A program made the position numbers and the translations under genes. The notes beneath the pieces were generated by a model that saw only the letters and a list, made by a program, of their open reading frames with translations, did not search any database and was not told the DNA's origin. From the NCBI RefSeq assembly GCF_007474545.1, contig NZ_VKOG01000002.1, forward strand, positions 552,796 through 616,795: a stretch of 64,000 nucleotides of DNA. The letters run 5' to 3'. This DNA is from Chryseobacterium binzhouense. GTDB taxonomy: Bacteria; Bacteroidota; Bacteroidia; Flavobacteriales; Weeksellaceae. Below are positions 14,875 through 30,312 of this stretch, piece by piece (position 1 is the first letter of the stretch; each line of letters begins with the position of its first letter).

Positions 14875-14932
14875 AAAATAAATATAATGATTTAACAGAT
14901 GTATTTTTATGATTGTAGAGTTTAAAATAAAA

Positions 14933-14960
14933 AACAGCGCAACAAAATTGTTACACTGTT
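14933..14960 (-). terminator. Terminator of paaZ
   Basis: On the minus strand AACAGTGTAACAA (from 14948-14960) pairs with TTGTTGCGCTGTT (14933-14945), 13 bp counting two G-U pairs, followed by TTTTTTATTTT. It lies 26 bases after the paaZ stop. Its arm also carries the TGTAACAAT word found in the repeats of this region. Confidence 0.8.
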
Positions 14961-14986
14961 ATATCGGTACATTGATTATTTGAATT

Positions 14987-17482: not shown

Positions 17483-17500
17483 ATAATATTTAATTTAACT

Positions 17501-17538
17501 ATGTATCAATCTTTTACACAGATACATTTTTATATTGT
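17501..17538. repeat. Word-type inverted repeat between the esterase gene and paaZ
   Basis: ATGTATC (17501-17507) pairs with GATACAT (17521-17527), followed by the word TATTGTTACATTTTT. It belongs to the same AACAATGTA/TACATTGTT-like set that fills other gaps of the paa region. Confidence 0.5.
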
Positions 17539-17545
17539 TACATTT

Positions 17546-18376
17546 TTAATTTTTCGGTTCCTGATACGGAAACAATTTTACCAAACCTTCATACAAACTT
17601 CTGTGTAGGATTGTTGCATGATTGTCTGTTTCCATCATTTTATATTCCACTGTCCAGTTTTTCTTGTTTGATTTTTTTAAAACATCAAATAAATCTTCTG
17701 CATCTTTTACCATTACAGGATGCTCTCCTTTTCCAACGGAAATGTAAATAAATTTTTTAGTATCCGGAATTTTAGCTAATAATTGAGGAGCCTGTTTTAG
17801 AAGACTTTCATCATCCCACCACAAACTCGGACTGATAATAAAGTAATTATTGAACAGTTCAGGCTTTTTCAATAAAATTTCGGTTGCTAAAAGTCCGCCG
17901 AGAGATTGTCCGAATAGATAGTTATCGGTGGTTTTGAACTGACTTTCAATATAAGGCTTCAATTCTTTATCTAAAAAATTAATAAACTTATCTGAATGTC
18001 CTGTTGTAGGGTAATCTTTCTGTAAATCTTTTAAATCCGTATGAAAAGTAAAGTCTCTCTTTCTGTCAATATTCGCAATTCCAACCACAATTGTTTCCGG
18101 CATGGAATACATTTGGTTAAAGAACTGAACCAAGCCTGTCACATGAATAAAATCTTCATTCATACCTCCATCCAAAAGATAAATAATTGGATAAGATTTT
18201 GTTTTGTCGAATTTTTGTGAAAGATAGATGTTCAAAGTTCTCTCTTCATTCAAAATTTTAGATTGTATCGTTCTGATTTCTCCAATAATCAGTGGTTTTA
18301 CATTTTCAGTCTGGGCGAAAACCAGAGACTGAAATGCAAACAGAATACTGCAGAAAATGAGAAGTTTTTTGATCAT
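17546..18376 (-). CDS. Secreted esterase of the PF00756 (Fes/EstD-like) type
   Basis: The protein has 276 residues and a signal peptide (ending SLVFAQ), followed by an alpha/beta-hydrolase domain. The nucleophile elbow is FGQSLGGLLA, and IYLLDGG supplies the usual oxyanion region; the catalytic His is probably in ETDNHATILHRSLYEG, which is typical of the putative-esterase family acting on siderophores, acyl esters or peptides. It lies between paaY and paaZ on the same strand, 11 bases after paaY, so it is co-transcribed with the phenylacetate genes. Being exported, it might release phenylacetate-type acids from esters outside the cytosol, but that link is only inferred from context. Confidence 0.88.
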   Translation of the reverse strand: MIKKLLIFCSILFAFQSLVFAQTENVKPLIIGEIRTIQSKILNEERTLNIYLSQKFDKTKSYPIIYLLDGGMNEDFIHVTGLVQFFNQMYSMPETIVVGIANIDRKRDFTFHTDLKDLQKDYPTTGHSDKFINFLDKELKPYIESQFKTTDNYLFGQSLGGLLATEILLKKPELFNNYFIISPSLWWDDESLLKQAPQLLAKIPDTKKFIYISVGKGEHPVMVKDAEDLFDVLKKSNKKNWTVEYKMMETDNHATILHRSLYEGLVKLFPYQEPKN

Positions 18377-18387
18377 AATAATTTTAA

Positions 18388-18981
18388 TTATTTCACATCA
18401 TTCCAAATGCTGTAATCCACAATTTTCGTAGGAATCTGCTGAATATATTCTGTGAAAGGTTCACAAGGCAGAATAGCATCTTTTCCTTCTCTTGCCAGTT
18501 CCTGATATAATTTTGTTCCTTCCGTTTTCCATTTGATCATTTCATCAGAAACATCGCGAATAATCTTTGCAGGACTTCCGACAATTAATTTTCTGGCATC
18601 ACATCTGAAGTTTGCCGGAACAAAAGCTAAAGCGCCGATGATACATTCGTCACCGATGACCGCTTTGTCCATCACGACAGAATTCATTCCGACCAGACAA
18701 TTTTTTCCGATATGCCCAGAATGGATAATCGCTCCATGCCCGATGTGTGCAGACTCTTCAAGTATGGTTTCAATTCCCGGAAAAACGTGCAGGGTACAGT
18801 TTTCCTGAACATTGGCACCGTCTTTTACTATTATTTTTCCCCAGTCGCCACGAATCACTGCATTGGGACCAACATAAACTTCTTCGCCGATTTCCACGTT
18901 GCCAATAATCACTGCTTGTGGATGAACAAAAGCTGAAGGTTTTATGATGGGGCGAATTCCGTGATATGAGTAGATATTCAT
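18388..18981 (-). CDS. paaY: PaaY-type hexapeptide-repeat protein (gamma-carbonic-anhydrase fold thioesterase)
   Basis: The 197-residue left-handed beta-helix protein has repeated hexapeptides from about residue 15 to 140 (for instance ILEESAHIGHGAIIHSGHIG), with the histidines that bind the metal in gamma-carbonic-anhydrase relatives. PaaY hydrolyses CoA esters that would trap CoA when the phenylacetate pathway stalls. ATG 18981 (MNIYSYHG) fits the family length (196 in E. coli). A longer frame reaches 19029 but would translate the intergenic repeat, so it is rejected. It sits between paaJ and the secreted esterase gene. Confidence 0.9.
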   Translation of the reverse strand: MNIYSYHGIRPIIKPSAFVHPQAVIIGNVEIGEEVYVGPNAVIRGDWGKIIVKDGANVQENCTLHVFPGIETILEESAHIGHGAIIHSGHIGKNCLVGMNSVVMDKAVIGDECIIGALAFVPANFRCDARKLIVGSPAKIIRDVSDEMIKWKTEGTKLYQELAREGKDAILPCEPFTEYIQQIPTKIVDYSIWNDVK

Positions 18982-18989
18982 AATTTTAG

Positions 18990-19086
18990 TTTGAGAATTA
19001 ATCAATTTGAAAATTTGATAATGTACCAATTTGAAATTAAAATGCGATGTGACATTTTCAAATTCTCAAATTAGCACATTTTCAAA
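18990..19086. repeat. Inverted word repeat without a gene inside (paaY/paaJ gap)
   Basis: The left part is built of AATTTGAAAATTTG and ACCAATTTGAAATT words and the right part of their complements (ATTTTCAAATTCTCAAATT). The right arm holds the 19-mer AAATTAGCACATTTTCAAA (19068-19086), which recurs unchanged at 21836-21854 and with two changes at 23416-23434, next to a four-helix-bundle gene. This looks like an empty copy of that element. Confidence 0.7.
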
Positions 19087-20292
19087 TTAAACTCTTTCAA
19101 TCACCATCGCATACCCTTGTCCGACACCGATACAAAGCGTACACAATGCATATTTTTTATTTTGTTTCTGTAGTTCCATTGCCGCAGAACCAACGATTCT
19201 GGCTCCGGAAACTCCAAGTGGATGACCGATTGCAATAGCACCTCCGTTTGGATTTACTCTTGAATCATCATCCTGTAAGCCTAAACTTCTTGTTACAGCT
19301 AAAGCCTGAGCCGCAAATGCCTCATTTAACTCAATGATATCCATATCGTCTAATGAAAGATTCAGTCTTTTTAATAGTTTTTGAGTCGCTTCTACAGGTC
19401 CGATTCCCATGATTCTTGGCTCAACACCGGCAACAGCAGAACCTAAGATTTTAGCTTTAGGTTTTAAACCATATTTTTTTACAGCTTCTTCACTTGCTAA
19501 AATTAAAGCTGCTGCTCCGTCATTCATTCCGGAAGCATTTCCTGCGGTTACCGTTCCTTCTTTTCTGAAAGCCGGACGAAGTTTTCCTAATCCTTCCATT
19601 GAAGAAGTCGGCTTGATGAATTCGTCGGTATCAAATATTTTCGGTTCGCCTTTTTTCTGAGGAATTTCAACTTTTACAATTTCTTCTGCCAGTCTTCCGC
19701 TTTCCTGAGCCTTAGTAGCTTTCTGCTGAGACCAAAGGGCAAATTTATCCTGATCTTCACGACTGATGTTGTGGATGTCTGCTAAATTCTCTGCAGTTTC
19801 CCCCATTCCGTCAACGCCGTACATTTCTTTCATTTTCGGGTTTATGAATCTCCATCCGAAAGTGGTGTCAAACATCTGACTGTCTCTTCCGAAAGCTGTA
19901 CTTGGTTTTGACATTACATAAGGAGAACGTGTCATATGCTCTACTCCGCCTGCGATATAAATTTCACCTTCTCCTGCAGCAATTGCACGAAAAGCATTTG
20001 CCACCGCAGACATTCCTGAAGCACACAATCTATTCACCGTTTCCCCTCCGATTTTATATGGAAGTCCAGCCAATAAAAGCCCCATTCTGGCAACATTTCT
20101 ATTATCTTCTCCTGCCTGATTAGCGCACCCGAAAATAACGTCCTCAATTTCCTCAACAGGAACTTCAGGGTTTCTTGCTACAATTTCTTTAATAACAATG
20201 GCAGCCAAATCGTCGGCTCTTACTTCTGAAAGACCTCCGCCTAATTTTGAAATGGGAGTTCTTATGTAATCTATGATATATACGTTGTTCAT
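19087..20292 (-). CDS. paaJ: 3-oxoadipyl-CoA/3-oxo-5,6-dehydrosuberyl-CoA thiolase
   Basis: This 401-residue thiolase cleaves the last CoA esters of phenylacetate breakdown to acetyl-CoA and succinyl-CoA. The active-site cysteine lies in RLCASGMSAVANA, the His in GGAIAIGHPLGVSGARIV and the second Cys in LCTLCIGVGQGYAMVIERV. The start NNVYIIDYIRTPISKLGGGL is typical of the PaaJ/PcaF subgroup. It lies between the four-helix gene upstream and paaY downstream, with word repeats in both gaps. Confidence 0.95.
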   Translation of the reverse strand: MNNVYIIDYIRTPISKLGGGLSEVRADDLAAIVIKEIVARNPEVPVEEIEDVIFGCANQAGEDNRNVARMGLLLAGLPYKIGGETVNRLCASGMSAVANAFRAIAAGEGEIYIAGGVEHMTRSPYVMSKPSTAFGRDSQMFDTTFGWRFINPKMKEMYGVDGMGETAENLADIHNISREDQDKFALWSQQKATKAQESGRLAEEIVKVEIPQKKGEPKIFDTDEFIKPTSSMEGLGKLRPAFRKEGTVTAGNASGMNDGAAALILASEEAVKKYGLKPKAKILGSAVAGVEPRIMGIGPVEATQKLLKRLNLSLDDMDIIELNEAFAAQALAVTRSLGLQDDDSRVNPNGGAIAIGHPLGVSGARIVGSAAMELQKQNKKYALCTLCIGVGQGYAMVIERV

Positions 20293-20315
20293 AATAATTC
20301 AATTTAACAATCTAG

Positions 20316-20372
20316 TAATGTAACAATGTAACAATCATTGGTAGACTGTTATATTGGTACATTGTTACATTA
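20316..20372. repeat. Long hairpin directly after four-helix-bundle gene A
   Basis: Arms 20316-20335 and 20353-20372 are complementary at 19 of 20 positions. The arm reads TAATGTAACAATGTAACAAT. The hairpin starts within the TAA stop of the gene at 20370-20720. It could act as a terminator, a processing site, or one end of a mobile cassette. Confidence 0.8.
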
Positions 20373-20720
20373 ATTTTTTAAACTTGTACTTAATATTTTA
20401 TAAATAATTTTTCCAATCTCTATAATCTGACTTTCCAATTTTTCATCAAATGGATAGCTTTTAGAGTGTTTACAGAGATAGAGCCAATATTTTGTTTCTT
20501 CTAATTCTTTAGCTGCAATTTTAATTTTGTTGACAAAATCATTTTTGCTGTTAGGGTTTTGTGCTTCAAACGAGTTGGCTCCGATGCTTGTTCCGGAACG
20601 CAACAATTGTTTAGCAATAACAAATTTTCTCTTTTCGTCCAACAATTCACAAAATTCAATGATATCTAAAGAAAATTGAACTGTTTTCTCAATTAATGGA
20701 TTATTTTCGAAATTAATCAT
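20370..20720 (-). CDS. S23-like four-helix-bundle protein (A)
   Basis: The 116-residue all-helical protein belongs to the group related to the proteins encoded in 23S rRNA intervening sequences and to Avd of diversity-generating retroelements. The hallmark RSGTSIGANSFEAQ and the later KIKIAAKELEETKYWL are both present. The fold forms a positively charged pentamer in solved relatives; the cellular role of chromosomal copies is unknown. It lies inside the paa operon, between paaI and paaJ, flanked by word-type inverted repeats (a 20-bp hairpin at its 3' side). A paralogue, about 45 percent alike by eye, is at 23032-23385. No reverse transcriptase or rRNA is nearby, so neither classical context applies. 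Confidence 0.9.
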   Translation of the reverse strand: MINFENNPLIEKTVQFSLDIIEFCELLDEKRKFVIAKQLLRSGTSIGANSFEAQNPNSKNDFVNKIKIAAKELEETKYWLYLCKHSKSYPFDEKLESQIIEIGKIIYKILSTSLKN

Positions 20721-20747
20721 TTGTGTTAAAATTAATTTTTATTTCAT

Positions 20748-20785
20748 CATTGTTAAATTATTATACTGATAAATTGTTACATTGA
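20748..20785. repeat. Word repeat upstream of four-helix-bundle gene A
   Basis: This AT-rich stretch reads, on the minus strand, AATGTAACAAT, a middle part, and AATTTAACAAT. Both 11-mers also occur in the 3' flank at 20301-20340 on the plus strand, so the two flanks of gene A carry the same words in opposite orientation. Confidence 0.6.
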
Positions 20786-20786
20786 G

Positions 20787-21200
20787 CTATAGCTCCGTTA
20801 CTTTTTTTCCTATTTTATACACTGTTCCGACAAATTTTGCCACCAACTCTTCGTTTTGATTGGTAATTTTAATATCGTAAACAGCGGTTTTTCTGGTTTC
20901 ATTGACCAAAATACTTTCTGCTCTGAAAGTATCCGCTTCTTTTCCGGCTTTGGTAAAATTGATGATGCAATTCAATGCAACGGCTGCATCTCCGGAATTG
21001 TTGGACGAAAAAGCCAGTGCAGAATCTGCAAAAGCAAACGTAACGCCTCCGTGAACCGTTTTCAGCCCGTTAATCATTTCTTTTTTAATGGGCATTTCAA
21101 TTAAACAATAATTTTCTTTAACTTCAATCAGTTTGATATTCATCCATTGGGAAAAATAATCCTGATCAAACATATATTCTGCAACCTGTCTCGGATTCAT
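20787..21200 (-). CDS. paaI: PaaI-type hotdog-fold thioesterase
   Basis: The protein has 137 residues and a hotdog fold. The central motif TVHGGVTFAFADSALAFSSN contains the HGG and the aspartate typical of PaaI, which hydrolyses hydroxyphenylacetyl-CoA and similar esters to free CoA when the ring cannot be opened. The N-terminus ends a cluster of helices (ADEYMFD-like AEYMFDQDYFSQWM) usual for the family. Its ATG overlaps the stop of the preceding small membrane gene by four bases, so translation is coupled. Confidence 0.93.
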   Translation of the reverse strand: MNPRQVAEYMFDQDYFSQWMNIKLIEVKENYCLIEMPIKKEMINGLKTVHGGVTFAFADSALAFSSNNSGDAAVALNCIINFTKAGKEADTFRAESILVNETRKTAVYDIKITNQNEELVAKFVGTVYKIGKKVTEL

Positions 21201-21445
21201 TTACTCTTATTTAAATTTTTAAATCTAATCACATCTTTCCATGTGTATTCTCTGCCGTCCAAAATGAAAAAAGCTAAAAACATAAAGATGAAATAAACGA
21301 TAAAACCATATATATTGATGCTTTTTTCATCGTCCCATCCCAAATAATAAAAAAGAAATTTGATAAGAGAAAATCCAACTACAAAAATAACGGCATTCAC
21401 GAATGAGCGTAAAAAGTTCTTTTTTGTAAAAATTCTTTTAAACAT
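21197..21445 (-). CDS. Small membrane protein of unknown function in the paa cluster
   Basis: The protein has 82 residues, two membrane helices (about 14-33 and 43-62) and a basic N-terminus (MFKRIFTKKNFLRS). It overlaps paaI by 4 bases and follows the gene at 21461-21769 by 15. No family is recognised. It is not part of known paa clusters. Confidence 0.6.
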   Translation of the reverse strand: MFKRIFTKKNFLRSFVNAVIFVVGFSLIKFLFYYLGWDDEKSINIYGFIVYFIFMFLAFFILDGREYTWKDVIRFKNLNKSK

Positions 21446-21460
21446 GGTTTAAATTTCAGA

Positions 21461-21769
21461 TTAATGTGTTATTTCTTCATATAATTCATCAGCTAACTTG
21501 TCGTAAACCACCATGGTTTTTCCAAGAATGATTTGATTGTATGAAAGATTTTCGGAATTTGATGGATCTTCTGCTTGAAAACGTTCATGTAAATTAATTC
21601 CAAATTCATTTGCTAATCTTTTAATCAGTTCTTTATATTTTTCATTGAATTTGCCTAATAATTCAAGCTTTTCCTGATAATCATGTATCGAAGACAGTTC
21701 CTGACTGATGTATTCTTTTTCAATGATAAGCCTTGTTTCAAGTTCGGCTCTGAATAATTCTATATCCAT
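21461..21769 (-). CDS. Small helical protein of unknown function in the paa cluster
   Basis: The 102-residue soluble protein is acidic and almost wholly helical, with a probable coiled-coil part (residues 1-60, heptad-like spacing of L and I in ELFRAELETRLIIEKEYIS). No family is recognised. It lies between paaH and the small membrane gene. The gap in front of it contains an inverted word repeat (21776-21857), and the gene may have arrived together with its neighbour. Confidence 0.55.
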   Translation of the reverse strand: MDIELFRAELETRLIIEKEYISQELSSIHDYQEKLELLGKFNEKYKELIKRLANEFGINLHERFQAEDPSNSENLSYNQIILGKTMVVYDKLADELYEEITH

Positions 21770-21775
21770 AATTTT

Positions 21776-21857
21776 AATTTGAAAATTAAATCAATTTGAG
21801 AATTTGAAAATCAAAACCTACTGTAATAAATTTTCAAATTAGCACATTTTCAAATTT
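21776..21857. repeat. Inverted word repeat without a gene inside, next to paaH
   Basis: Left words (AATTTGAAAATT, AATTTGAGAATTTGAAAAT) face their complements on the right (AAATTTTCAAATT). The right arm has the 19-mer AAATTAGCACATTTTCAAA at 21836-21854, identical to 19068-19086. Confidence 0.7.
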
Positions 21858-22991
21858 TTAATTCAATTTACGAAGCAACGGGCTTTGTCTGTATCTTTCT
21901 TCCTGATATTCTTCGTACAGATTCTGCAAAGTTTCAGAGATTTTAGCATATCCGATTTCTTTTCCCCAAGCCAATAAACCTTTGGGATAATTTACGCCCT
22001 TCTGCATTGCCAATTCCAGATCTTCGTCATTTGCTACGCCTAACCTTTTTGCTTCTACGGCTTCATTAATCAGCATGGAAATAATTCTCATGAATATTTG
22101 TTGATAAAGCGCATCATCTTTCACTGGTTCCGGTTTAACAGCTCCTTCCGAATAATCGTAAAAACCTTTTCCTGTTTTTCTGCCGTGAAGTTTGGCTTCC
22201 GACATTCTTTGCTGTAGAAGAGATGGTTTGTATTTCGGATCGTAGAAATATTCGTTGTACACAGTTTTAGTCACCGATAAATTCACATCAACTCCTATTA
22301 AATCCATTAATTCAAAAGGTCCCATTTTAAAGTTACCTAAAGTTTTCATGGCATCATCAACCTGTTCTACCGTTGCGATGCTTTCCTCAACAATTCTCAA
22401 CCCTTCTCCATAGAAAGGACGGGCAATTCTGTTGACGATAAATCCGGGAATATCTTTTGCAATAACCGGAGTTTTCCCCCAATCTTTCATGAGATTGTAG
22501 ATTTTTTCCGCTAAAGATTTTTCGGTTAATAAGGATGGAATAACCTCCACTAAAGGCATCAACGGAGCCGGATTGAAGAAGTGAATTCCGATGAAACGCT
22601 CCGGTTTCTGTAATTCCGCACCAAGAGAGGTGATGGAAATGGAAGATGTATTGGAACCAATCACACAACTTTCAGAAACATGTTTTTCTAATTCTGTGAA
22701 AACTTTGGTTTTGATTTCTTTATTTTCAATGATGGCTTCAATGATCAATTCACAATCTTTGAAGTCCTTCAATTCTGTAGCGATGGAAATATTAGATAAA
22801 ATTTCAGTCATTTTCTCTGCCGAAATTTTCTGTTTATCAACCAATCTGGTTAACGTTTTTTCCAAACCTACGGTTGCCGTTTCTACCTGTTTTGTGTTGG
22901 CGTCATAAACCCAAACTTTGCATCCGTTCGTTGCGGCTACTTGTGCAATGCCGATTCCCATGGTTCCGGCACCGATAATTCCTACATTCAT
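21858..22991 (-). CDS. paaH: 3-hydroxyacyl-CoA dehydrogenase
   Basis: The 377-residue NAD-dependent enzyme oxidises 3-hydroxyadipyl-CoA in the beta-oxidation part of the pathway. The Rossmann motif GAGTMG is at residues 7-12, and the signature GIHFFNPAPLMPLVEVI contains the catalytic His. A C-terminal domain with IPGFIVNRIARPFYGEGLRI follows, plus a second one of about 90 residues. E. coli PaaH has about 475 residues, so this is the shorter bacterial form. The gene lies between four-helix gene B and the small genes before paaI. Confidence 0.95.
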   Translation of the reverse strand: MNVGIIGAGTMGIGIAQVAATNGCKVWVYDANTKQVETATVGLEKTLTRLVDKQKISAEKMTEILSNISIATELKDFKDCELIIEAIIENKEIKTKVFTELEKHVSESCVIGSNTSSISITSLGAELQKPERFIGIHFFNPAPLMPLVEVIPSLLTEKSLAEKIYNLMKDWGKTPVIAKDIPGFIVNRIARPFYGEGLRIVEESIATVEQVDDAMKTLGNFKMGPFELMDLIGVDVNLSVTKTVYNEYFYDPKYKPSLLQQRMSEAKLHGRKTGKGFYDYSEGAVKPEPVKDDALYQQIFMRIISMLINEAVEAKRLGVANDEDLELAMQKGVNYPKGLLAWGKEIGYAKISETLQNLYEEYQEERYRQSPLLRKLN

Positions 22992-23007
22992 ATTTTTAAT
23001 TTGAAAA

Positions 23008-23033
23008 TTTGGAAATGAGTTAATTTGAAAATT
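23008..23033. repeat. Left arm of the inverted repeat enclosing four-helix gene B
   Basis: This 26-nt arm is complementary at 24 of 26 positions to 23409-23434. It ends inside the stop codon of the enclosed gene (23032-23034). The two arms could fold into a long stem in the operon mRNA with the whole gene in the loop. Confidence 0.8.
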
Positions 23034-23385
23034 ATTTAAGCTTCGAACTTGAAATAATTTTAGATAGAATTAATAAAATTTCTTTTAAATCTGAAATTAA
23101 TTTTTCATTGGGCGATTGCAAATGTGGAGACTTTAAACACAGTAAAAGCCAATATTCTGTTTCATCAGCTTCTTTAGCGGCAATTTTCAATTTATGGATA
23201 AAATCTGCCTTGCTTTCTGCATTTTGGGCTTCTCTAACATTGGCTCCAATCGAAGTTCCAGATTTGAAAATCTGATTTGCTAATGGAAATCTTTTAGATT
23301 CATACAAACCTTCTGAAAATTCGATAATGTCTAATGCAAAATCAAAAGTCTTATTTACAATAATATTTTCTTTATCATTTCTCAT
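23032..23385 (-). CDS. S23-like four-helix-bundle protein (B)
   Basis: The 117-residue paralogue of gene A has the same signature (KSGTSIGANVREAQ and LKIAAKEADETEYWL) and the same four predicted helices. It lies between paaG and paaH in the paa operon and is enclosed by two complementary 26-nt arms (24 of 26 matches). In spirochaetes and Coxiella, relatives are encoded inside 23S rRNA intervening sequences whose ends form a stem cut by RNase III. The layout here imitates that arrangement within a protein-coding operon. A direct role in phenylacetate breakdown is unlikely. Confidence 0.9.
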   Translation of the reverse strand: MRNDKENIIVNKTFDFALDIIEFSEGLYESKRFPLANQIFKSGTSIGANVREAQNAESKADFIHKLKIAAKEADETEYWLLLCLKSPHLQSPNEKLISDLKEILLILSKIISSSKLK

Positions 23386-23408
23386 TTAATGCTCTTTAAA
23401 CATTTTCA

Positions 23409-23434
23409 AATTCTCAAATTAACTCATTTTCAAA
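23409..23434. repeat. Right arm of the inverted repeat enclosing four-helix gene B
   Basis: It complements 23008-23033 with two mismatches. Its last 19 bases match the 19-mers at 19068 and 21836 except at two positions, tying the arm to the gene-less copies. It ends five bases before the paaG stop codon. Confidence 0.8.
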
Positions 23435-23438
23435 TTAA

Positions 23439-24239
23439 TTATCTTCCTTTATAAATAGGTTTTCTTTTTTCTAAAAAGGCACTTACTCCTTCTTTAAAGT
23501 CTTCAGTTTCTGCTGCTTTCTGTTGTAAATCGCCTTCTAACTCCAATTGCTGTTTGAGTGTATTGTCATAAGAATGAGCAAATGCTTTTTTGGTTAGTTT
23601 TAAACCAACAGTCGGCATATTTGACACTTTTTCTAAAATTTCCATTGATTTTGAATTGAATTCTTCTTCAGTGAAAACTTCTGCCACCAAACCGTAAGAT
23701 TTTGACTCTTCCGCAGATAATTTTTTTCCTGTGAATGCTAAATAATTAGCTAATTGTCTTCCGAGTAATTTTGGAAGGAAATAAGTTCCACCCGTATCAG
23801 GAATTAAACCGATATTAGAAAATGCCTGAGCAAAATACGCTTTGTCTGTTGCCAAAACAAAATCACAGATCAACGCCAACATCGCTCCGGCTCCAACTGC
23901 AGGACCGTTTACCAACGCTACAACCGGTTTTTTGCAATGGGTAATTTCCATTACCAAAGGATTGTAATAATCTGTCACAATTCTTCTGATAATATCGTTA
24001 TCATGATGTTCATTACCCTGTACAAAAGCATCATCTAAATTCTGACCAGAACAAAAAGCTCTTCCTCTTCCTGAAATGGCAACACATCTTACTGTAGGAT
24101 CTTCGCTGTATTCTTTAACGAAGTCTTTAAGATCTGATAAAGACGGTTTTGTAAGCGCATTCATGGTATCCGGCTGATTCAGATAAGCAATTTTAAGTTT
24201 CCCGTCAAAATGCGACTCAATATCGAGTTGTGTATACAT
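23439..24239 (-). CDS. paaG: 1,2-epoxyphenylacetyl-CoA isomerase (PaaG)
   Basis: The 266-residue crotonase-fold enzyme isomerises the ring epoxide to oxepin-CoA and also shifts double bonds later in the pathway. The oxyanion hole shows as RAFCSGQNLDD and VNGPAVGAGAMLAL. The catalytic Asp lies in NIGLIPDTGGTYFLP, the arrangement typical of PaaG rather than of hydratases, which carry Glu. The gap upstream to paaD is 131 bases of word repeats. The downstream neighbour is four-helix gene B. Confidence 0.93.
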   Translation of the reverse strand: MYTQLDIESHFDGKLKIAYLNQPDTMNALTKPSLSDLKDFVKEYSEDPTVRCVAISGRGRAFCSGQNLDDAFVQGNEHHDNDIIRRIVTDYYNPLVMEITHCKKPVVALVNGPAVGAGAMLALICDFVLATDKAYFAQAFSNIGLIPDTGGTYFLPKLLGRQLANYLAFTGKKLSAEESKSYGLVAEVFTEEEFNSKSMEILEKVSNMPTVGLKLTKKAFAHSYDNTLKQQLELEGDLQQKAAETEDFKEGVSAFLEKRKPIYKGR

Positions 24240-24261
24240 AGTTTTAATTTTTATGATTAAT

Positions 24262-24366
24262 GCACTAATTTAACAATAAAAATGTACCAATATATCAGTT
24301 TACCAATATAACAATATTTAAAGCATTCAAAATTGTTATATTGTTATATTTTCAGATTGTTACATT
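24262..24366. repeat. Word-repeat block between paaG and paaD
   Basis: Words such as TTTAACAAT, AATGTACCAATATAT and TTTACCAATATAACAAT are followed by their rough complements (ATTGTTATATTGTTATATT, GATTGTTACATTAA). It forms an imperfect long hairpin. It contains no open frame. Confidence 0.65.
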
Positions 24367-24370
24367 AATT

Positions 24371-24835
24371 TTAGTGACATTTAAAATAGTCAAAAGGTTC
24401 TAAACAGTCTAAACACTGATACGAAGCCTTACATAGTGTAGACCCGAATCTGCTGATCTGTTTTGAGTTCATAGAACCGCAACGCGGACATTTTTTTGGT
24501 TTGCCGATGTGATGCTCATCGGCTCCTTTTTCGGGAGGCGTGATTCCGTACACCCGAAGTTTTTCTCTCGCTTTATCTGTTAACCAGTCTGTTGTCCAGA
24601 TCGGAAACATTTTGGTCACCACTTTTGCCTCCCATCCGTTTTCTTTCATTATTTTGATGATATCTTCCTCAATGGTAAACATGGCGGGACAAGCCGAATA
24701 AGTTGGCGTAATGGTTATTTCACAAGAATTCTCGCTCGTAACTTTGGCTTCTCTTACAATGCCTAATTCCACAATATTAATAACCGGAATTTCCGGATCG
24801 GGAACTTGGGATAATATGTTTAATAAATTACTCAA
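24371..24835 (-). CDS. paaD: PaaD, Fe-S maturation factor of the epoxidase
   Basis: The 154-residue protein has a MIP18/DUF59 domain (residues 1-100, with SQVPDPEIPVINIVELGIV and TPTYSACPAM) and a C-terminal zinc-ribbon-like part with cysteine pairs (CPRCGS, QCLDCLEP). PaaD is needed for a functional PaaABCE monooxygenase and is thought to serve its Fe-S reductase. The start is TTG 24835, inside the stop region of the upstream lipoprotein gene (8-base overlap); no ATG is available in this frame. This suggests that the lipoprotein gene was inserted just at the paaD start. Confidence 0.93.
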   Translation of the reverse strand: MSNLLNILSQVPDPEIPVINIVELGIVREAKVTSENSCEITITPTYSACPAMFTIEEDIIKIMKENGWEAKVVTKMFPIWTTDWLTDKAREKLRVYGITPPEKGADEHHIGKPKKCPRCGSMNSKQISRFGSTLCKASYQCLDCLEPFDYFKCH

Positions 24836-25511
24836 ATTTTTCTATAAAATATATTGAATTGTTGCCTAATATTAGACTATCCTTACGTTTGGGGTCTTTT
24901 GCACTAACAATTTCGCTGAAATATCCTGAAATATGATCTCCTTTTTTGAAACCATATTTAATATCTGCAAAATATTTTCCTTCTTTAACATTTTTATAGA
25001 CAAAAGAATCTATTTTGATTTCTTTTCTATCTCTATAAATTGTATAAATGACTTTAGCTTCTTTATAAATTTCATTTTTTATCTCAGGAGAGAAAAATTT
25101 GTAAAGTAATCCTTTATATGTTTTATTTTCTACTAAATAAAATTTACTATGAGAAGAATCTATTTTACCATGTTCTTTAAAAATAATTTGATTTTTGAAG
25201 AAATCATTCTTACCAAAAACTATATAATCAATTTGTATTTCCTTGGAATCAGTTTTATTCTTTAAACTCCAGATTCCTGTTTTTGTATTATTCTTTCTAT
25301 CGAAATCTCCACTAAGTATAAAATATCCTGTGTGAGCAGTAATACGAGTTACGGAATCATTGATTTTTTTCTTCCATTGATTCTTGTAATTTTTCAACTG
25401 AAACATTTCTTCAATATTTCCCATATCATTAATGACTTTAGCTTCCACCGCCTTTTTTTGACAAGAAATAATGAAAAAACTAATTATTGAAAAGATTACG
25501 AATTTACTCAT
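24828..25511 (-). CDS. Lipoprotein of unknown function inserted between paaC and paaD
   Basis: The protein has 227 residues with a lipoprotein signal (IISFFIISC), and a Lys- and Asn-rich mature part with alternating beta strands. No known family is recognised. Codon use is visibly more AT-rich than in the flanking paaC and paaD. Since PaaC and PaaD act in the cytosol, an exported lipoprotein is out of place here. Its stop overlaps the start of paaD by 8 bases. Confidence 0.7.
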   Translation of the reverse strand: MSKFVIFSIISFFIISCQKKAVEAKVINDMGNIEEMFQLKNYKNQWKKKINDSVTRITAHTGYFILSGDFDRKNNTKTGIWSLKNKTDSKEIQIDYIVFGKNDFFKNQIIFKEHGKIDSSHSKFYLVENKTYKGLLYKFFSPEIKNEIYKEAKVIYTIYRDRKEIKIDSFVYKNVKEGKYFADIKYGFKKGDHISGYFSEIVSAKDPKRKDSLILGNNSIYFIEKFE

Positions 25512-25573
25512 ATATATAAAATCAAACTTTATAGCAATTAATTGTTAAACTGCTACATTGCTACATTCAAAAT

Positions 25574-26323
25574 CTACCATGTACAACCCGGATATGCTCT
25601 CTGCATATACTGCAATTCACAAAGGATATATCCAAAATATTCTGTGTGATATCCTGTTCTGGATTTTGGCTGCATGAAAGGATTGGTAGGATATTCTAAG
25701 TAGAAATCTGCAAAATCTTTTTTGGTGATTGCTAAAAATTCTTCATAAAGAGCATCTGTATTCGGAGCAATATTTAAAGCTACTAAATCATCTTCTCCTT
25801 CTGTTTTTGCAAATAAACCTTTGGTGTATTCCCAGATATTTTCAATGGCTTTTTCTAAACGGCTCTTACTTTCTTCCGTTCCCTGAGCGAAAATTTTCAT
25901 CCAGGATGCAGCATGTGTGTAATGATATTTTACCTCTTTTAATGATTTTTGAGCAATAGCCGCCAATTCTTCATTGGCTGAATTGGATAATGCTTCGTAC
26001 ATCAGTTTCTGATACACTGCGAAAACGTAAACTTTTAAAATCGTCTGAGCATAATCTTCGTTCGGAAGTTCTGTCCAGTGTGCATTTACATATTCGTGTT
26101 CGTATCTTAAAAAAGCGATATCATCTTCAGATTTTCCGTCGTCTAAAAGTCTTGAAGCGTAAACGTAAAAGTTATTCGCTTGTCCGAGTTCATCCAACGC
26201 AATGTTTGTTAATGCAATATCTTCCTCCAGATAAGGACCTTCACCGCACCACGCAGACAAACGCTGTCCCATAATGAAACTGTCGTCTGCTAATTTTAAT
26301 AGATAATTATATAATGGGTTCAT
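25574..26323 (-). CDS. paaC: PaaC, structural subunit of phenylacetyl-CoA epoxidase
   Basis: The protein has 249 residues and a ferritin-like fold without a full di-iron site. In E. coli PaaC forms the stable heterodimer with PaaA. Recognisable stretches are LLKLADDSFIMGQRLSAWCG near the N-terminus and KYHYTHAASWMKIFAQGTEE in the middle, and the C-terminal YILCELQYMQRAYPGCTW is highly typical. It follows paaB by 69 bases (with a GCCAAAAGC-type inverted repeat in the gap). Confidence 0.95.
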   Translation of the reverse strand: MNPLYNYLLKLADDSFIMGQRLSAWCGEGPYLEEDIALTNIALDELGQANNFYVYASRLLDDGKSEDDIAFLRYEHEYVNAHWTELPNEDYAQTILKVYVFAVYQKLMYEALSNSANEELAAIAQKSLKEVKYHYTHAASWMKIFAQGTEESKSRLEKAIENIWEYTKGLFAKTEGEDDLVALNIAPNTDALYEEFLAITKKDFADFYLEYPTNPFMQPKSRTGYHTEYFGYILCELQYMQRAYPGCTW

Positions 26324-26327
26324 TGTT

Positions 26328-26388
26328 TTAGCTTTTGGCTTTTGGCGTATAGCTTTTGGCCAAATGCCAGCAGCTAACAGCCAAAAGA
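26328..26388. repeat. Inverted repeat of GCCAAAAGC type between paaB and paaC
   Basis: The left part has three copies of AGCTTTTGGC-like words, and the right part has CCAAATGCCAGCAGCTAACAGCCAAAAG, which split into words complements the left. It is a third repeat family, unlike the AACAATGTA and TTTGAAAAT families of the nearby gaps. Confidence 0.65.
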
Positions 26389-26392
26389 TGTT

Positions 26393-26674
26393 TTACATAT
26401 TTTTTACATCGTTCGGGATCTCGTAGAATGTTGGATGACGGTATAGTTTGTCATCAGCCGGATCGAAGAATGCTTCTTTATCCACCCCTTCTGAAGTTAC
26501 GATGTATTTACTTGGAACTACCCAAACAGAAGTTCCTTCTTTTCTTCTTGTATAAACGTCTCTTGCGTTCTGCAAAGCCATTTCTGCTGTTGGTGCCTGT
26601 ACAATTCCAACGTGTTTGTGAGATAATCCCGGCTTAGTCTGAATAAATACTTCCCACATATCTAAATTTGCCAT
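26393..26674 (-). CDS. paaB: PaaB subunit of phenylacetyl-CoA epoxidase
   Basis: The protein has 93 residues, the usual length. The sequence WEVFIQTKPGLSHKHVGIVQ at the start and DVYTRRKEGTSVWVVPSKYI in the middle are nearly invariant in PaaB, a small bridging subunit that joins the PaaAC dimers of the complex. It lies between paaA and paaC. Confidence 0.97.
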   Translation of the reverse strand: MANLDMWEVFIQTKPGLSHKHVGIVQAPTAEMALQNARDVYTRRKEGTSVWVVPSKYIVTSEGVDKEAFFDPADDKLYRHPTFYEIPNDVKNM

Positions 26675-26688
26675 AATTAAAATTAATT

Positions 26689-26790
26689 TAACAATGTATC
26701 AATGTACCAGTTTAACAATGAGATGCTTCGACAAGTTCAGCATGACAATGATTGTTACATTTTTACATTGGTATATTGTTATATTGAAAT
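26689..26790. repeat. Composite repeat between paaA and paaB, with CTTCGACAAGTTCAGCATGAC core
   Basis: Words of the AACAATGTATCAATGTACCA type on the left face ATTGTTACATT, ACATTGGTATATTGTTATATT on the right. The centre (about 26720-26745) holds GATGCTTCGACAAGTTCAGC, which itself forms a small hairpin (ATGCT with AGCAT). This core resembles a short dispersed repeat found in many bacterial chromosomes. Confidence 0.7.
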
Positions 26791-27717
26791 TTTTTCCTGT
26801 TTTTCTGCAAAAGCTGCTGCCGCTTCTTTTACCCAAGCATTCTCTCTCTGCGCCTTTCTTTTGGTTTCGATACGCTTTTTATTGGCAGGACCATTTCCTT
26901 TTAAGATTTCCATGAATTCATCCCAAGGAAGTTCTCCGAAATCGTAATGCTGTCTTTCTTCATTCCATTTCAGATCTTTGTCCGGAATGGTTAATCCCAA
27001 AAACTCAGCCTGAGAAACGGTAACGTCAATAAATCTCTGACGAAGACTGTCGTTACTCTCTCTTTTCACTCTGTAATTCATAGAGATTTTTGAGTTTGGC
27101 GAACTATCGTCATTCGGACCAAACATCATTAAAGCTGGCCACCAGAAACGATTTAACGAAGCCTGAGCCATTTCTTTCTGCTGTTTTGTACCGCGGCAAA
27201 GAGCCATCAAAATCTCGTAACCCTGTCTTTGGTGGAAAGATTCTTCTTTACAGATTTTCACCATCGCTCTTGAGTAAGGACCGTAAGAATTCCCCATCAA
27301 CATTACCTGATTCATAATGGCAGCACCATCAACCAACCAACCGATCGCACCGATATCTGCCCAGCTTAAAGTCGGATAGTTAAAAATACTTGAATATTTT
27401 GCTTTTCCTGAAAGCATATCTTCATAGGTTGCATCTCTGTCGGCTCTGATCGTTCCGTTTCCCAAAGTTTCTGTTGCAGAATAAAGGTATAAACCGTGAC
27501 CTGCCTCGTCCTGAACTTTAGCCAAAAGAGCCATCTTTCTTCTCAGTGAAGGCGCTCTGGAAATCCAGTTAGCTTCCGGCAACATCCCAACAATCTCAGA
27601 ATGGGCGTGCTGTGAAATCTGACGAACCAATAGTTTTCTGTAATCATCGGGCATTACATCTTTTGGTTCTACTTTATTTTCGTCGTGTACGTATTGTACA
27701 AATTTTTCTAAATCCAT
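26779..27717 (-). CDS. paaA: PaaA, catalytic subunit of phenylacetyl-CoA epoxidase
   Basis: The 312-residue di-iron ferritin-like oxygenase inserts oxygen into phenylacetyl-CoA to give the 1,2-epoxide. Iron-ligand motifs are visible as [15 protein letters not shown] and [13 protein letters not shown] (two ExxH pairs), with [20 protein letters not shown] before the first. The C-terminal part has the PaaA-typical [19 protein letters not shown]. It follows paaE by 74 bases and precedes paaB. Confidence 0.97.
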
Positions 27718-27791
27718 TTTCTTGTTTTTTGTAAAATGTAAAAAGTATTTATGTATTCATGAATACGTTTTACATTAATCATTAATACAAT

Positions 27792-28877
27792 TTAAACATC
27801 ATAATTAAGCATCACCACATTCGTTGTCGGGTGACATTGGCAAGTAAGAACGAAGCCTCTGGCTACTTCTTCTTCGGTAAGCGCGTAGTTTTTTTCCATG
27901 AAAACTTCACCTTCTAAAACTTCAGCCTTACACGTACAGCACACTCCTCCTTTACACGCAAAAGGTACAGGAAGATTGTCTTTCAATGCTTTATCTAAGA
28001 TACTCTCTTTTTTTGAATTCAAATGGAAAGAATATTCATCATCATCAATGATTACTGTTACCATACTTTCGATATTGGCAATGGCTTTAAACTCATCGCT
28101 CATTTCCTCCGTATTTTCTTCGTCAGGAGCAGTGAAATATTCAAATAAAACCTGAATTGCCGGTACTTTTTTATCTTTCTTTAAATAATCTGCAATTCCT
28201 TTGATCATTTCCGAAGGTCCACAAATAAAATAAGTAGCCTCTTTTACATCAATATCTGTATATCTTTCAAATAAAAGTTCCAGTTTGTCCGGACAAATTC
28301 TTCCTTCAAAAAGCGGATCTTCATGCTTTTCACGGCTTACGAGATAAACTACTTTCAATCTTCCGTTAAACTGTTCTACCAGCCTTTCAATTTCCGCCTT
28401 TTTCATTACATGATTCATGCTTCTGTTGCTGTAAAACAGGTAAGCATTAGAATTCGGTTCCTGATAAAGACTTTCTTTAATATTTGATAAAACCGGAGAA
28501 ATACCGCTTCCTGCTGCCAAACCAACGTAAGTTTTCACATTTGTCGGGTGATAAGAAGTGTTGAAACCGCCCATTGGAGGCATTACTTCCAAAACTTCAT
28601 CCATGTGAAGATGTTCGTTGAAATAACCGGAAACTTTTCCGCCTTCCAGTAATTTCACCAAAACTTCCAGCGTGTTGCTTTTTTCGCTCGGCGCATTGCA
28701 AATGGAGTAAGAACGTCTTTCTTCGTTTCCGTTGATCATCAATTTAAAATTGAGATACTGACCTTGCTTAAATCTGAATTTATCTTTCAGCTCTTCAGGA
28801 ATTTCCACAGCTACACTTACAGCATCGTTGGTATCTTTCTCGACCTTAACGGTTTTTAGTTTATAAAATGAATTCAT
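27792..28877 (-). CDS. paaE: PaaE, ferredoxin-type reductase of phenylacetyl-CoA epoxidase
   Basis: The 361-residue flavoprotein passes electrons from NADPH to PaaA. Residues 1 to about 110 bind FAD (RRSYSICNAPSE), about 110-240 bind NADPH (GLAAGSGISPVLSNIKESL), and the C-terminal plant-type ferredoxin domain carries CKGGVCCTCKAEV and a later Cys in LTCQCHP for the [2Fe-2S] cluster. It is the first paa gene here and has its own promoter and palindrome upstream. In E. coli paaE is last of the epoxidase genes, so the order differs. Confidence 0.96.
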   Translation of the reverse strand: MNSFYKLKTVKVEKDTNDAVSVAVEIPEELKDKFRFKQGQYLNFKLMINGNEERRSYSICNAPSEKSNTLEVLVKLLEGGKVSGYFNEHLHMDEVLEVMPPMGGFNTSYHPTNVKTYVGLAAGSGISPVLSNIKESLYQEPNSNAYLFYSNRSMNHVMKKAEIERLVEQFNGRLKVVYLVSREKHEDPLFEGRICPDKLELLFERYTDIDVKEATYFICGPSEMIKGIADYLKKDKKVPAIQVLFEYFTAPDEENTEEMSDEFKAIANIESMVTVIIDDDEYSFHLNSKKESILDKALKDNLPVPFACKGGVCCTCKAEVLEGEVFMEKNYALTEEEVARGFVLTCQCHPTTNVVMLNYDV

Positions 28878-28923
28878 TATTTTTATAAAGTAATCTTTAA
28901 TTCTTAGTTTATATTAAAACTAA

Positions 28924-28937
28924 CTAACACTTGTTAG
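28924..28937 (-). promoter_or_regulatory. Palindromic operator in front of paaE
   Basis: CTAACA-CT-TGTTAG (28924-28937) is a perfect inverted repeat located just downstream of the -7 box, at the expected start of transcription. This geometry suits a TetR-type repressor such as the PaaR proteins released by phenylacetyl-CoA. No tetR gene is in the window, so the regulator must be elsewhere. Confidence 0.65.
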
Positions 28938-28941
28938 GTTG

Positions 28942-28972
28942 TAAATTTAAAAATAATTTTACTGATAGCAAA
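28942..28972 (-). promoter_or_regulatory. Promoter of the paa operon
   Basis: On the minus strand TTTG (28969-28972), 19 nt, and TAAATTTA (28942-28949) match the phylum consensus except for the last base. The predicted start point falls inside the palindrome at 28924-28937. Confidence 0.65.
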
Positions 28973-28974
28973 AT

Positions 28975-30312
28975 TTATCTTGAATCTGTGTTATTGATTT
29001 TTTTTATCTTTAAAATTTCAGATTCATGTAATGCATCCGTCACCTGTCCTGTTTTTGCAAAGTCTGCCCAAAGTGCACGGATTTTTTTACCTTCCTGAAA
29101 AAGATATTCCCACGAAATGTTTTTTAAAAGTACTGAATTTTTCCATGCTGTTTTATTGGCAAATATCAAAGGAAGATCTATACAATGAGAAGCTCCGGTA
29201 TAACTTTCGTCAGATAAAGAATAGATTTTATACAAATGGATATTTCCTCTGCCATTAGCATAATTGTGTGCAAAAACCTGAGCCGGTTTTTCATAGATTG
29301 ACTTAGTTGTAGATCTTATAATGCTGTTCAGAATTCTCTTAGGCAGATAAGTATAGAGACCGTTCTCTGCAGTTTTTACATAAAATGCAGTTTCATCATG
29401 ATTTGAACCAATCAGAACATCATATTTTGAAGCATTTTTTCTCCATAAATCCAAACTTTCTTCTTCTTTACACAAAGGAGAAAAACCGTATTGAGTGCAA
29501 AAAGGCATTGAAGTCTTTAGTCCGTATTTTCTGAATGATGGTAAAAACTTTTCATAACTGTTCACCATTTTCAGAACATCATTTTCATTTTTAAGATCTT
29601 CTGTTTTAAGGAAAAACTCTTCTGACATTTTTTGTCTTCTATGCCTGAAACCAAGTGGTGCACTTTGGATAATTGCCCGGTGAAACAATCCTTCCACACC
29701 TTCTGAAATCATCAGATGAGCAATGGCATCACCACCGGAAGACTGTCCGAAAAGCGTAATATTGTTCTTATCACCATCAAAATTTTCAATATGATTCTGA
29801 ATCCATTTCAGAGCTTCTATTATATCAAACAAACCTAAATTGGCTGGTCTTTCATCAGTTCCACCCAAAAAACCAAACAAACCCAAACGATAAGAGACCG
29901 AAACTACCATTACATTTTGTTCCTTTACCCAGACTGAAGGATCTGAAGTGGGAAGACTTCCGCAACCAATTTCGTAAGAACCACCATGAATCCAGACAAT
30001 GACAGGAAATTTTCCGGTATTTTTTGAAATTTCAGGACGGGTAATGGTAAGAAATTGTGGAGATTCATCAGGAATAAAATCTTCCGGATCTGTTTTTTGA
30101 ATCAATCTATCTAAAAAAGGACTTAATTTTTGAGGACAAACCGGAGTTTTATCTAAAATTTGTTCAAAACTATTTTTTAATCTTGCAGGATGTTTGAACC
30201 TATCTGATCGGGCGTAGCGAATATTTTTAGCCTTTAAAACATTGTTTTCACGAAATGCAAGAATATCTCCTATAGATGTACGAAATGTATGAGTTTTAAC
30301 CTGATTCTGCAT
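28975..30312 (-). CDS. Carboxylesterase, type B family
   Basis: The 445-residue alpha/beta-hydrolase has the type-B signatures: IVWIHGGSYEIG (oxyanion hole), NLGLFDIIEALKWIQNHIENFDGD and LFGQSSGGDA with nucleophile Ser191. GASHCIDLPLIFAN near the end contains the probable catalytic His. No signal peptide is seen, so it is cytosolic. Substrates are unknown. It lies upstream of paaE on the same strand, but the paa promoter lies between, so joint control is uncertain. Confidence 0.9.
   Translation of the reverse strand: MQNQVKTHTFRTSIGDILAFRENNVLKAKNIRYARSDRFKHPARLKNSFEQILDKTPVCPQKLSPFLDRLIQKTDPEDFIPDESPQFLTITRPEISKNTGKFPVIVWIHGGSYEIGCGSLPTSDPSVWVKEQNVMVVSVSYRLGLFGFLGGTDERPANLGLFDIIEALKWIQNHIENFDGDKNNITLFGQSSGGDAIAHLMISEGVEGLFHRAIIQSAPLGFRHRRQKMSEEFFLKTEDLKNENDVLKMVNSYEKFLPSFRKYGLKTSMPFCTQYGFSPLCKEEESLDLWRKNASKYDVLIGSNHDETAFYVKTAENGLYTYLPKRILNSIIRSTTKSIYEKPAQVFAHNYANGRGNIHLYKIYSLSDESYTGASHCIDLPLIFANKTAWKNSVLLKNISWEYLFQEGKKIRALWADFAKTGQVTDALHESEILKIKKINNTDSR

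What the first reader, a model, noticed from the sequence alone, without database searches (positions are those of the whole stretch)
22998..23440. Four-helix-bundle gene enclosed by complementary arms inside the paa operon: an intervening-sequence-like cassette
Seen: gene B (23032-23385) is bracketed by 26-nt arms (23008-23033, 23409-23434) that complement at 24 of 26 positions. Known: the protein family (S23/IVP) is classically encoded in 23S rRNA intervening sequences whose ends form a stem cut by RNase III, and Avd relatives serve diversity-generating retroelements. Here there is neither rRNA nor reverse transcriptase. Inferred: the cassette moved into a coding operon and may be folded out or cut from the paa mRNA, with the protein possibly binding the stem. 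This is the best candidate for an undescribed system in the window.
Basis: partly seen in the sequence, partly recalled or inferred. Interest (0 to 1): 0.72.

Follow-up and report, generated by a model that had tools for sequence, protein, structure and literature searches.

The report
Swappable operon hairpin carrying S23 gene
Between two genes of a degradation operon sits a small protein gene held in the loop of a hairpin built from repeated 7-8-letter words, one of four interchangeable hairpin types seen at that spot in related species, which suggests that the odd inserts known from ribosomal RNA may belong to a larger, little-noticed class of elements living inside ordinary operons.

Summary
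Gene B (23032-23385, minus) is a PF05635/S23 gene between 28-nt arms that are 93% complementary. Scanning the window every 5 nt with a 360-nt loop, gene B and the window's other S23 gene rank first and second for complementary flanks.

It is not a one-off:
(1) Of 126 S23 loci of the genus at 25 sites, 95 exceed the null for inverted flanks. Arms are arrays of 7- or 8-nt words that differ by site.
(2) S23 genes 70-90% identical at different sites share arms at 3 of 4 site pairs, so gene and arms travel together.
(3) The same period marks 154 of 156 gene-less paa gaps.
(4) At paaG-paaH, 90 of 90 sampled genomes carry one of four allele classes: S23 cassette or three other hairpins, nearly uncoupled from the paaH tree.
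(5) Similar arms occur in other Bacteroidota families, at 10 of 16 plasmid loci of other phyla, and heptamers in a published rRNA intervening sequence.

Best reading: an operon-gap counterpart of rRNA intervening sequences. Stem cutting and the protein's role are untested.

The parts
23032..23385 (-). S23/IVP-family four-helix-bundle gene (gene B, P0001), in the loop of the stem
   Evidence: match to PDB 2rld at E 1.8e-25; median dN/dS 0.066 over 76 of 78 pairs from 13 intact orthologues, broken copies left out
23401..23438 (-). 5' arm (transcript sense), 8-nt degenerate words (TTGAAAAT/GAGTTAAT/TTGAGAAT)
   Evidence: best lag 8 in 13 of the 14 site-0 loci that passed the pairing filter
22996..23033 (-). 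3' arm (transcript sense), complementary to the 5' arm
   Evidence: permutation test of arm matching at site 0, p=0.005
23439..24239 (-). paaG-like gene upstream, ends at the 5' arm
   Evidence: gene name recalled from sequence
21858..22991 (-). paaH-like gene downstream, starts just after the 3' arm
   Evidence: gene name recalled from sequence
20370..20720 (-). second S23 gene of the window (gene A, P0002)
   Evidence: relatives at carA-carB, paaI-thiolase and one further site
20746..20785 (-). 5' arm of gene A (TAACAATG words)
   Evidence: ends read by eye
20299..20338 (-). outer 3' arm of gene A (TAACAATG words); 20299-20375 is periodic at lag 8
   Evidence: ends read by eye
21770..21857 (.). 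gene-less TTTGAAAAT-word hairpin in the next gap (paaH to orf102)
19053..19089 (.). gene-less TTTGAAAAT-word element in the thiolase-paaY gap (lag 8)
24281..24369 (.). gene-less TAACAATG-word hairpin in the paaD-paaG gap (lag 8)
26325..26361 (.). gene-less 7-nt-word (GGCTTTT) element in the paaB-paaC gap
26685..26795 (.). gene-less TAACAATG-word hairpin in the paaA-paaB gap with a REP-like core in its loop; the periodic stretch runs slightly past the gap

Best explanation
The segment is one allele of an intercistronic stem-loop element. Two inverted arms, each a short array of 7- or 8-nt degenerate words, form a stem. In this allele the loop holds an S23 gene; in the other alleles the loop is short. 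The S23 form is the gene-carrying form of the class and the bare hairpins are its gene-less relatives. Proposed working: in the polycistronic paa mRNA the arms pair. The stem is cut, most likely by RNase III as in rRNA intervening sequences, so the insert does little harm to paaG or paaH, and S23 is translated from the operon transcript. The S23 protein binds the word arrays and helps the unit to persist or to be copied into other gaps. Shown here: anatomy, word grammar, joint travel of gene and arms, purifying selection on intact copies of the protein, allele turnover at the gap. Inferred: descent of the bare hairpins from S23 forms, cutting of the stem, binding and mobilisation by S23, and the copying route.
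For: Flanks: in 126 S23 loci of the genus, upstream against inverted downstream flank scores 32.3 on average, against 17.8 direct and 17.0 for mismatched sites; 95 of 126 loci and 18 of 25 site means exceed the null 95%. Inverted score minus best self-hairpin is above 0 in 101 of 126 S23 loci and 7 of 87 ordinary paa genes. Words: 154 of 156 paa gaps of 60-180 nt have best lag 7, 8, 14, 15 or 16, against 323 of 780 shuffles; S23 flanks peak at 7, 8, 14 or 16 at 22 of 25 sites and in 28 of 29 loci of other families. Travel: of 89 pairs at different sites with 70% or more protein identity, 88 share arms; 84 are one site pair, and 3 of 4 site pairs agree. Relatives of gene A: of 46 loci, 24 lie at carA-carB, 19 at paaI-thiolase, 1 at a third site and 2 are distant; 43 of the 44 have the word on both sides. 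At carA-carB, S23 genes 68-74% identical carry one of two words, both arms changed. Sense: both neighbours co-directional with S23 in 124 of 126 loci. Median dN/dS 0.047-0.066 at four sites, intact copies only. Precedent: a published 23S intervening sequence has an S23 ORF, a 28-bp terminal stem cut by RNase III, and tandem heptamers before the ORF (PMC4990558, passages).
Against: No RNA data: cutting is untested. 31 of 126 genus loci, 11 of 29 loci of other families and 6 of 16 plasmid loci do not exceed the null for inverted arms. Of the eight related carA-carB cassettes, four score under the genus null of 24 (16, 21, 23, 23). One of four site pairs with 70% identity does not share arms. Arm matching beyond the site average is significant at sites 0, 1, 2, 4, 6 but not at 3, 5, 7, 8. 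S23 identity at this site tracks paaH identity (rho 0.85 over 9 genomes; 0.71 over 30), which looks like old vertical inheritance rather than frequent jumping. The S23 ORF is shorter than 110 aa in 8 of 30 alleles. S23 has no known catalytic activity (recalled), and in the published case the protein was thought not to be made. Some cyanobacterial S23 genes lie antisense to both neighbours. Ordinary paa genes also show a raised inverted cross score (27.6), because neighbouring gaps often share a word.
Confidence: 0.6

Rival explanations
1. Ordinary dispersed palindromic repeats (REP or MITE-like) fill the gaps, and S23 genes lie among them by coincidence.
For: The same words occur without S23 in many gaps. 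A Y1 transposase gene and REP-like hairpins do sit in some of these gaps.
Against: S23 flanks hold half-hairpins, not whole ones (self scores 20.0 and 22.1; inverted cross 32.3). The split index differs from ordinary genes with p about 1e-27, loci taken as independent although many are orthologues. Non-S23 genes inserted in the same gaps, read by eye, show arms on one side or none. The pattern recurs in other phyla.
Confidence: 0.12
2. A DNA transposon-like element: the arms are terminal repeats moved in trans by an unidentified transposase and S23 is cargo or accessory.
For: Inverted ends, joint travel of gene and arms, several sites.
Against: Arms are periodic word arrays that differ between sites. 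Sense orientation in 124 of 126 loci. Gaps look wholly replaced from stop to start codon, by eye. Target duplications were not tested. No transposase search was made.
Confidence: 0.15
3. Selected regulatory hairpins: each gap keeps a few old alleles under balancing selection or through short-tract recombination, and the S23 allele is simply one of them; nothing moves on its own.
For: Four recurring, site-specific allele classes at paaG-paaH in 90 of 90 sampled genomes. Within-allele divergence tracks paaH for S23, TAACAATG and TTAGAAG forms (rho 0.71, 0.47, 0.67) with similar mean identities. Flank similarity is linked to allele mainly in the last 30 nt of paaG (p 0.009).
Against: S23 cassettes up to 90% identical at different sites need movement. 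The GTAAAAT class does not track paaH (rho 0.08). It does not explain why S23 sits in split arms.
Confidence: 0.25

Closest known systems
rRNA intervening sequences (IVS) with an S23/IVP ORF, as in Coxiella, Leptospira and Brucella (PMC4990558, passages read)
   Same: S23-family ORF in the loop of a stem formed by complementary termini of about 28 bp; short tandem repeats beside the ORF (heptamers there, octamers here); sporadic distribution among close relatives; preferred places of insertion.
   Different: Here the host is a protein-coding operon gap, not rRNA; intact copies of the protein are under purifying selection, whereas the published ORF is described as decaying; bare hairpins of several words alternate at the same site; RNase III cutting is not shown.
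REP/RAYT systems (PMC2817692: start of abstract in the listing and two passages; the rest recalled)
   Same: Dispersed intergenic palindromes with a partner gene between repeats.
   Different: Partner gene is S23, not a Y1 transposase; stems are periodic word arrays with many words; the gene splits one hairpin instead of lying near whole ones. A Y1 gene occurs at carA-carB in one of the genomes read.
Avd proteins of diversity-generating retroelements (resemblance recalled)
   Same: Small four-helix-bundle fold thought related to S23.
   Different: The only reverse transcriptase gene found in the own genome is a group II intron maturase.
TAACTGA heptamer repeats of Beggiatoaceae, Cyanobacteria and Bacteroidetes (PMC4679880, abstract and passages) and cyanobacterial STRR heptamers (recalled)
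   Same: Intergenic 7-nt tandem repeats near start codons with patchy distribution.
   Different: Mostly direct arrays, not paired arms; S23 has 0 occurrences in the text of that paper. One Pseudanabaena S23 gene read here lies between direct heptamer arrays.

Membership tests
PF05635 / TIGR02436 (S23, 23S rRNA intervening sequence protein) | Profile score over the curated cut-off | tested here: met
   82.7 bits against 33.8; 95.5 against 24
PF05635 / TIGR02436 (S23, 23S rRNA intervening sequence protein) | Four-helix bundle, pentamer | tested here: inconclusive
   Sequence match to 2rld, one entry with five chains; no model was made here; a pentamer is reported for a Xanthomonas homologue in PMC4990558
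rRNA intervening sequence | Complementary termini forming a stem with the ORF in the loop | tested here: met
rRNA intervening sequence | Located inside a 16S or 23S rRNA gene | tested here: not met
   Lies between paaG and paaH
rRNA intervening sequence | Removed by RNase III, RNA left in pieces | not testable with these tools
rRNA intervening sequence | Sporadic presence among close relatives | tested here: met
   S23 form in 10 of 30 genomes read and at least 48 of 174 by contiguous match among listed rows
Diversity-generating retroelement accessory (Avd) | Nearby reverse transcriptase with template and variable repeats | tested here: not met
   The only RVT_1 gene found in the own genome is a group II intron maturase about 320 kb away on the same contig; template and variable repeats were not searched for
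REP/RAYT | Y1-type transposase associated with the palindromes | tested here: not met
   Genes A and B score as S23 and not as Y1_Tnp; a Y1_Tnp gene was found at carA-carB of another genome
MITE / insertion sequence | Target-site duplication | not tested
   No formal search; gap edges differ between alleles by eye

The most novel reading that the evidence does not exclude
Bacteria carry an RNA-level class of elements defined by a grammar, not a sequence: inverted arms of 7- or 8-nt words, with an S23 gene in the loop of the complete form. They sit mostly in sense inside operon gaps (including carA-carB and groES-groEL), exchange whole alleles between species with almost no flanking DNA, and leave gene-less hairpins as the normal filling of operon gaps in Chryseobacterium. 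The rRNA intervening sequences are the special case that was noticed because it breaks rRNA. The S23 ring reads the words, and the 7/8-nt period reflects the step of the enzyme or ring that writes them.
Probability: 0.4. Interest if true: 0.93.

Novelty: new variant of a known kind. Interest (0 to 1): 0.84.

Why it matters
S23 proteins are common (a match in 116 of 148 genomes of the phylum searched, 113 over the cut-off) and have no known function (stated in PMC4990558). Tying them to a precise nucleic-acid partner, a word-built stem, makes that function directly testable. It would also recast rRNA intervening sequences as one corner of a larger class, and pose a new question: why does a gap of one operon hold a few old alternative hairpins that are almost uncoupled from the tree of the flanking gene?

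Tried and rejected
Rfam: no match at gathering score in 14000-30000; two sub-threshold miRNA matches taken as chance. Retroelement partner: rejected. Exchange with long flanks: same-allele pairs are no more alike in paaG and paaH overall (0.830 against 0.831); of 14 overlapping windows tested, the last 30 nt (p 0.009) and last 60 nt (p 0.013) of paaG and paaH 300-600 (p 0.016) stood out. Steady compensatory drift as proof of pairing: weak; own arms barely beat exchanged arms for orthologues 75-100% alike, and 4 of 9 sites tested give no signal. Hairpin strength alone as the mark: weak; 11 E. coli gaps score 22-40 without any 7/8 period (no shuffles run there), and only 66 of 156 paa gaps individually beat all 50 of their own shuffles although the mean is higher (41.5 against 24.3). 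The first look at S23 flanks ignored strand and was redone. The first period test used only well-paired loci and was repeated without that filter. The within-genome tendency to one word family (0.574 against 0.371) is not corrected for relatedness and leaves out gaps my classifier could not name. The 90-genome sample is not random: 30 are the loci (29 of them S23 carriers), 40 were picked from its listing, 20 came; its allele frequencies are not estimates, and the GTAAAAT class lumps visibly different sequences. The Nostoc C052 control stretch itself holds an S23 gene. Literature: 10 searches of the held library brought up no description of S23 genes between word arms in operon gaps; I read listings and the passages named in this report, and subscription papers and preprints are not covered.

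Full report
WHAT IS THERE. A paa (phenylacetate; names recalled) operon runs on the minus strand. Between paaG (23439-24239) and paaH (21858-22991) lies gene B (23032-23385), an S23/IVP-family gene with a clear sequence match to PDB 2rld. Its flanks contain arms that are 93% complementary over 28 nt. Scanning the window every 5 nt with a 360-nt loop, gene B scores highest for complementary flanks (46) and the window's second S23 gene (gene A, 20370-20720) comes next (35).

THE ARMS ARE WORD ARRAYS. The arms are short arrays of degenerate 7- or 8-nt words. At gene B the word is TTTGAAAAT-like, at gene A TAACAATG-like. I took 126 unique S23 loci of the genus (of more than were listed) and grouped them into 25 sites by flanking DNA. 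The upstream flank matches the inverted downstream flank (mean 32.3) but not the direct one (17.8); the null from other sites is 17.0, and 95 of 126 loci exceed its 95% value. Each S23 flank alone is not a hairpin (20.0 and 22.1). Ordinary paa genes show the reverse: each gap is a whole hairpin (42.1 and 43.3), though their inverted cross score is also raised (27.6) because neighbouring gaps often share a word. The difference of inverted score and self score is positive in 101 of 126 S23 loci and 7 of 87 ordinary genes. So an S23 gene sits where the loop of a hairpin would be. Gene A itself has a negative index because a further hairpin lies beside its 3' arm. Of 156 paa gaps of 60-180 nt, 154 have their best lag at 7, 8, 14, 15 or 16, against 323 of 780 shuffles. 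As a small control, 11 E. coli gaps of 53-284 nt show no such preference (3 of 11 at 7, 14 or 16), although their hairpin scores reach 22-40. The gaps inside E. coli paaA-paaK are at most 26 nt.

GENE AND ARMS TRAVEL TOGETHER. Among 4362 S23 pairs at different sites, arm similarity stays near background below 55% protein identity and jumps at 70% and above. There, 88 of 89 pairs share arms, but 84 of them are one site pair; counted by site pair it is 3 of 4, the exception being one pair at 70.7%. Gene A is the clearest case. Of 46 related loci, 24 lie at carA-carB, 19 at paaI-thiolase, 1 at a third site (77-94% identical) and 2 are distant (53 and 57%); 43 of the 44 have the TAACAATG word on both sides and the one exception is a shortened copy. 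At carA-carB the arm even supplies the last codons and stop of carA. In the 30 genomes read, the same gap holds three different S23 cassettes, a Y1 transposase gene, REP-like palindromes or other fillings. Three genomes (G047, G019, G032) have the altered carA end without an S23 gene, which I read as a footprint of loss. Two groups of carA-carB S23 proteins, 68-74% identical to each other and 86-99% within a group, carry two different words, changed in both arms by eye; four of these eight score under the genus null for pairing.

FOUR ALLELE CLASSES AT ONE GAP. In 30 of 59 searched genomes, 10 have the S23 form at paaG-paaH and 20 have a hairpin of another word. In a larger, non-random set of 90 of 174 genomes, every one falls in four classes by my word classifier: S23 form 30 (one a deletion derivative), TAACAATG hairpin 30, TTAGAAG hairpin 15, GTAAAAT hairpin 15. 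Four example hairpins each fold better than 200 shuffles (z -3.4 to -8.1). On a paaH tree of 30 genomes the four states need 16 changes, the same as shuffled labels (mean 16.0). On 90 genomes they need 39, shuffled mean 47.2, as low in 1 of 200 shuffles, so there is some clustering among close relatives. Pairs with paaH identity under 0.92 share an allele at about the chance rate (0.23-0.29 against 0.278); pairs at 0.95 or more do so in 0.667 of 12. Within an allele, gap identity tracks paaH identity for S23, TAACAATG and TTAGAAG forms (rho 0.71, 0.47, 0.67) but not for the mixed GTAAAAT class (0.08). The plain reading is that the alleles are old and have been sorted or exchanged among species with very short flanks: allele-linked similarity is clear only in the last 30-60 nt of paaG. 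Whether this is standing polymorphism or exchange between species cannot be told with one genome per species.

THE PROTEIN IS KEPT. Among intact copies median dN/dS at four sites is 0.047-0.066, with dS near 1 (0.7-1.2), so the ratios are rough. At paaG-paaH 22 of 30 S23 alleles keep an ORF of 110 aa or more and 8 do not. S23 and both neighbours point the same way in 124 of 126 loci, by a simple ORF rule. By sequence, with names recalled, sites include carA-carB, groES-groEL and a gap before nadD.

BEYOND THE GENUS. In 29 S23 loci outside the genus the inverted score is 26.9 against a null of 15.5, 18 of 29 above the null 95%, and 28 of 29 have best lag 7, 8, 14 or 16. A plasmid search found 41 records with S23, mostly cyanobacteria. 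I read 16 loci, all outside Bacteroidota: 10 exceed the null for inverted arms and 14 have best lag 7, 8, 14 or 16. Random placements in two Nostoc plasmid stretches have a 99% value of 22. One Pseudanabaena locus has direct, not inverted, heptamer arrays on both sides. In print, the Coxiella 23S intervening sequence has an S23 ORF, a 28-bp terminal stem cut by RNase III and two or three tandem GACAGAT heptamers before the ORF (PMC4990558, passages). IVP ORFs were also reported in rRNA inserts of CPR bacteria (PMC11270868, one passage). A Flavobacterium columnare paper lists a four helix bundle gene between guanylate kinase and a nicotinate nucleotide adenylyltransferase without comment in the passages seen (PMC5524665); the downstream gene is like that of site 5 here, the upstream one is not.

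HOW IT LIKELY WORKS. The word arms pair in the operon mRNA; S23 lies in the loop; the stem is probably cut by RNase III, as in rRNA. This would let an insert persist in operons of needed genes. The S23 ring probably binds the word array. The bare hairpins would be gene-less relatives. The cutting, the binding and the copying route are inference. Permutation supports matched arms at sites 0, 1, 2, 4 and 6 and not at 3, 5, 7 and 8.

VERDICT. By the membership rule it is not an rRNA intervening sequence, since the rRNA location fails; it appears to work like one. I file it as a new variant of a known kind, with a real chance that the class itself is new.

Noticed in passing
window 26685-26795 and relatives such as L083, L086, L096: TAACAATG-word hairpins often carry a REP-like core (TGCTTCGACAAGCTCAGCATGACA or its complement) in the loop, as if one repeat had entered another.
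   Followed up: no
paaY-esterase gap in L078, L081, L087, L091 and others: An ORF of up to about 190 aa (MSNTENFECGYVYHI...) near whole palindromes (AAACCTCATAGGTTT...): looks like a REP-associated transposase by eye, but the copy tested had no Pfam match; a true Y1_Tnp gene sits at carA-carB in L283.
   Followed up: partly
L023, L033, L034, L036, L037, L204, L209, L213: S23 cassettes lie between groES-like and groEL-like genes (names recalled), with GGCTTTTGGC-like words.
   Followed up: no
carA-carB S23 relatives (24 loci), and L268, L269, L272: The S23 arm rewrites the C-terminal end of CarA (FKNVPV* in place of FKK*), and three genomes keep this end without the S23 gene.
   Followed up: partly
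L367, L371, L374: In cyanobacterial plasmids S23 genes sit inside CRISPR operons (cas6-S23-cas4 twice, cas10-S23-cmr3 once).
   Followed up: no
window, near 44490-44500: Third-best place in the window for a 360-nt segment with complementary flanks (score 31); no PF05635 match there in the own-genome search.
   Followed up: no
window 35193-35293 and 39223-39259: Further 7-nt periodic stretches outside the paa operon.
   Followed up: no
window 24828-25511: A lipoprotein-like ORF overlaps the start of paaD in the paaC-paaD gap, with a TAACAATG-like half arm on one side only; other genomes have other genes or a bare hairpin there.
   Followed up: partly
G000:C9:255600-256424 (L292): The own genome carries one group II intron maturase with an HNH domain.
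   Followed up: yes
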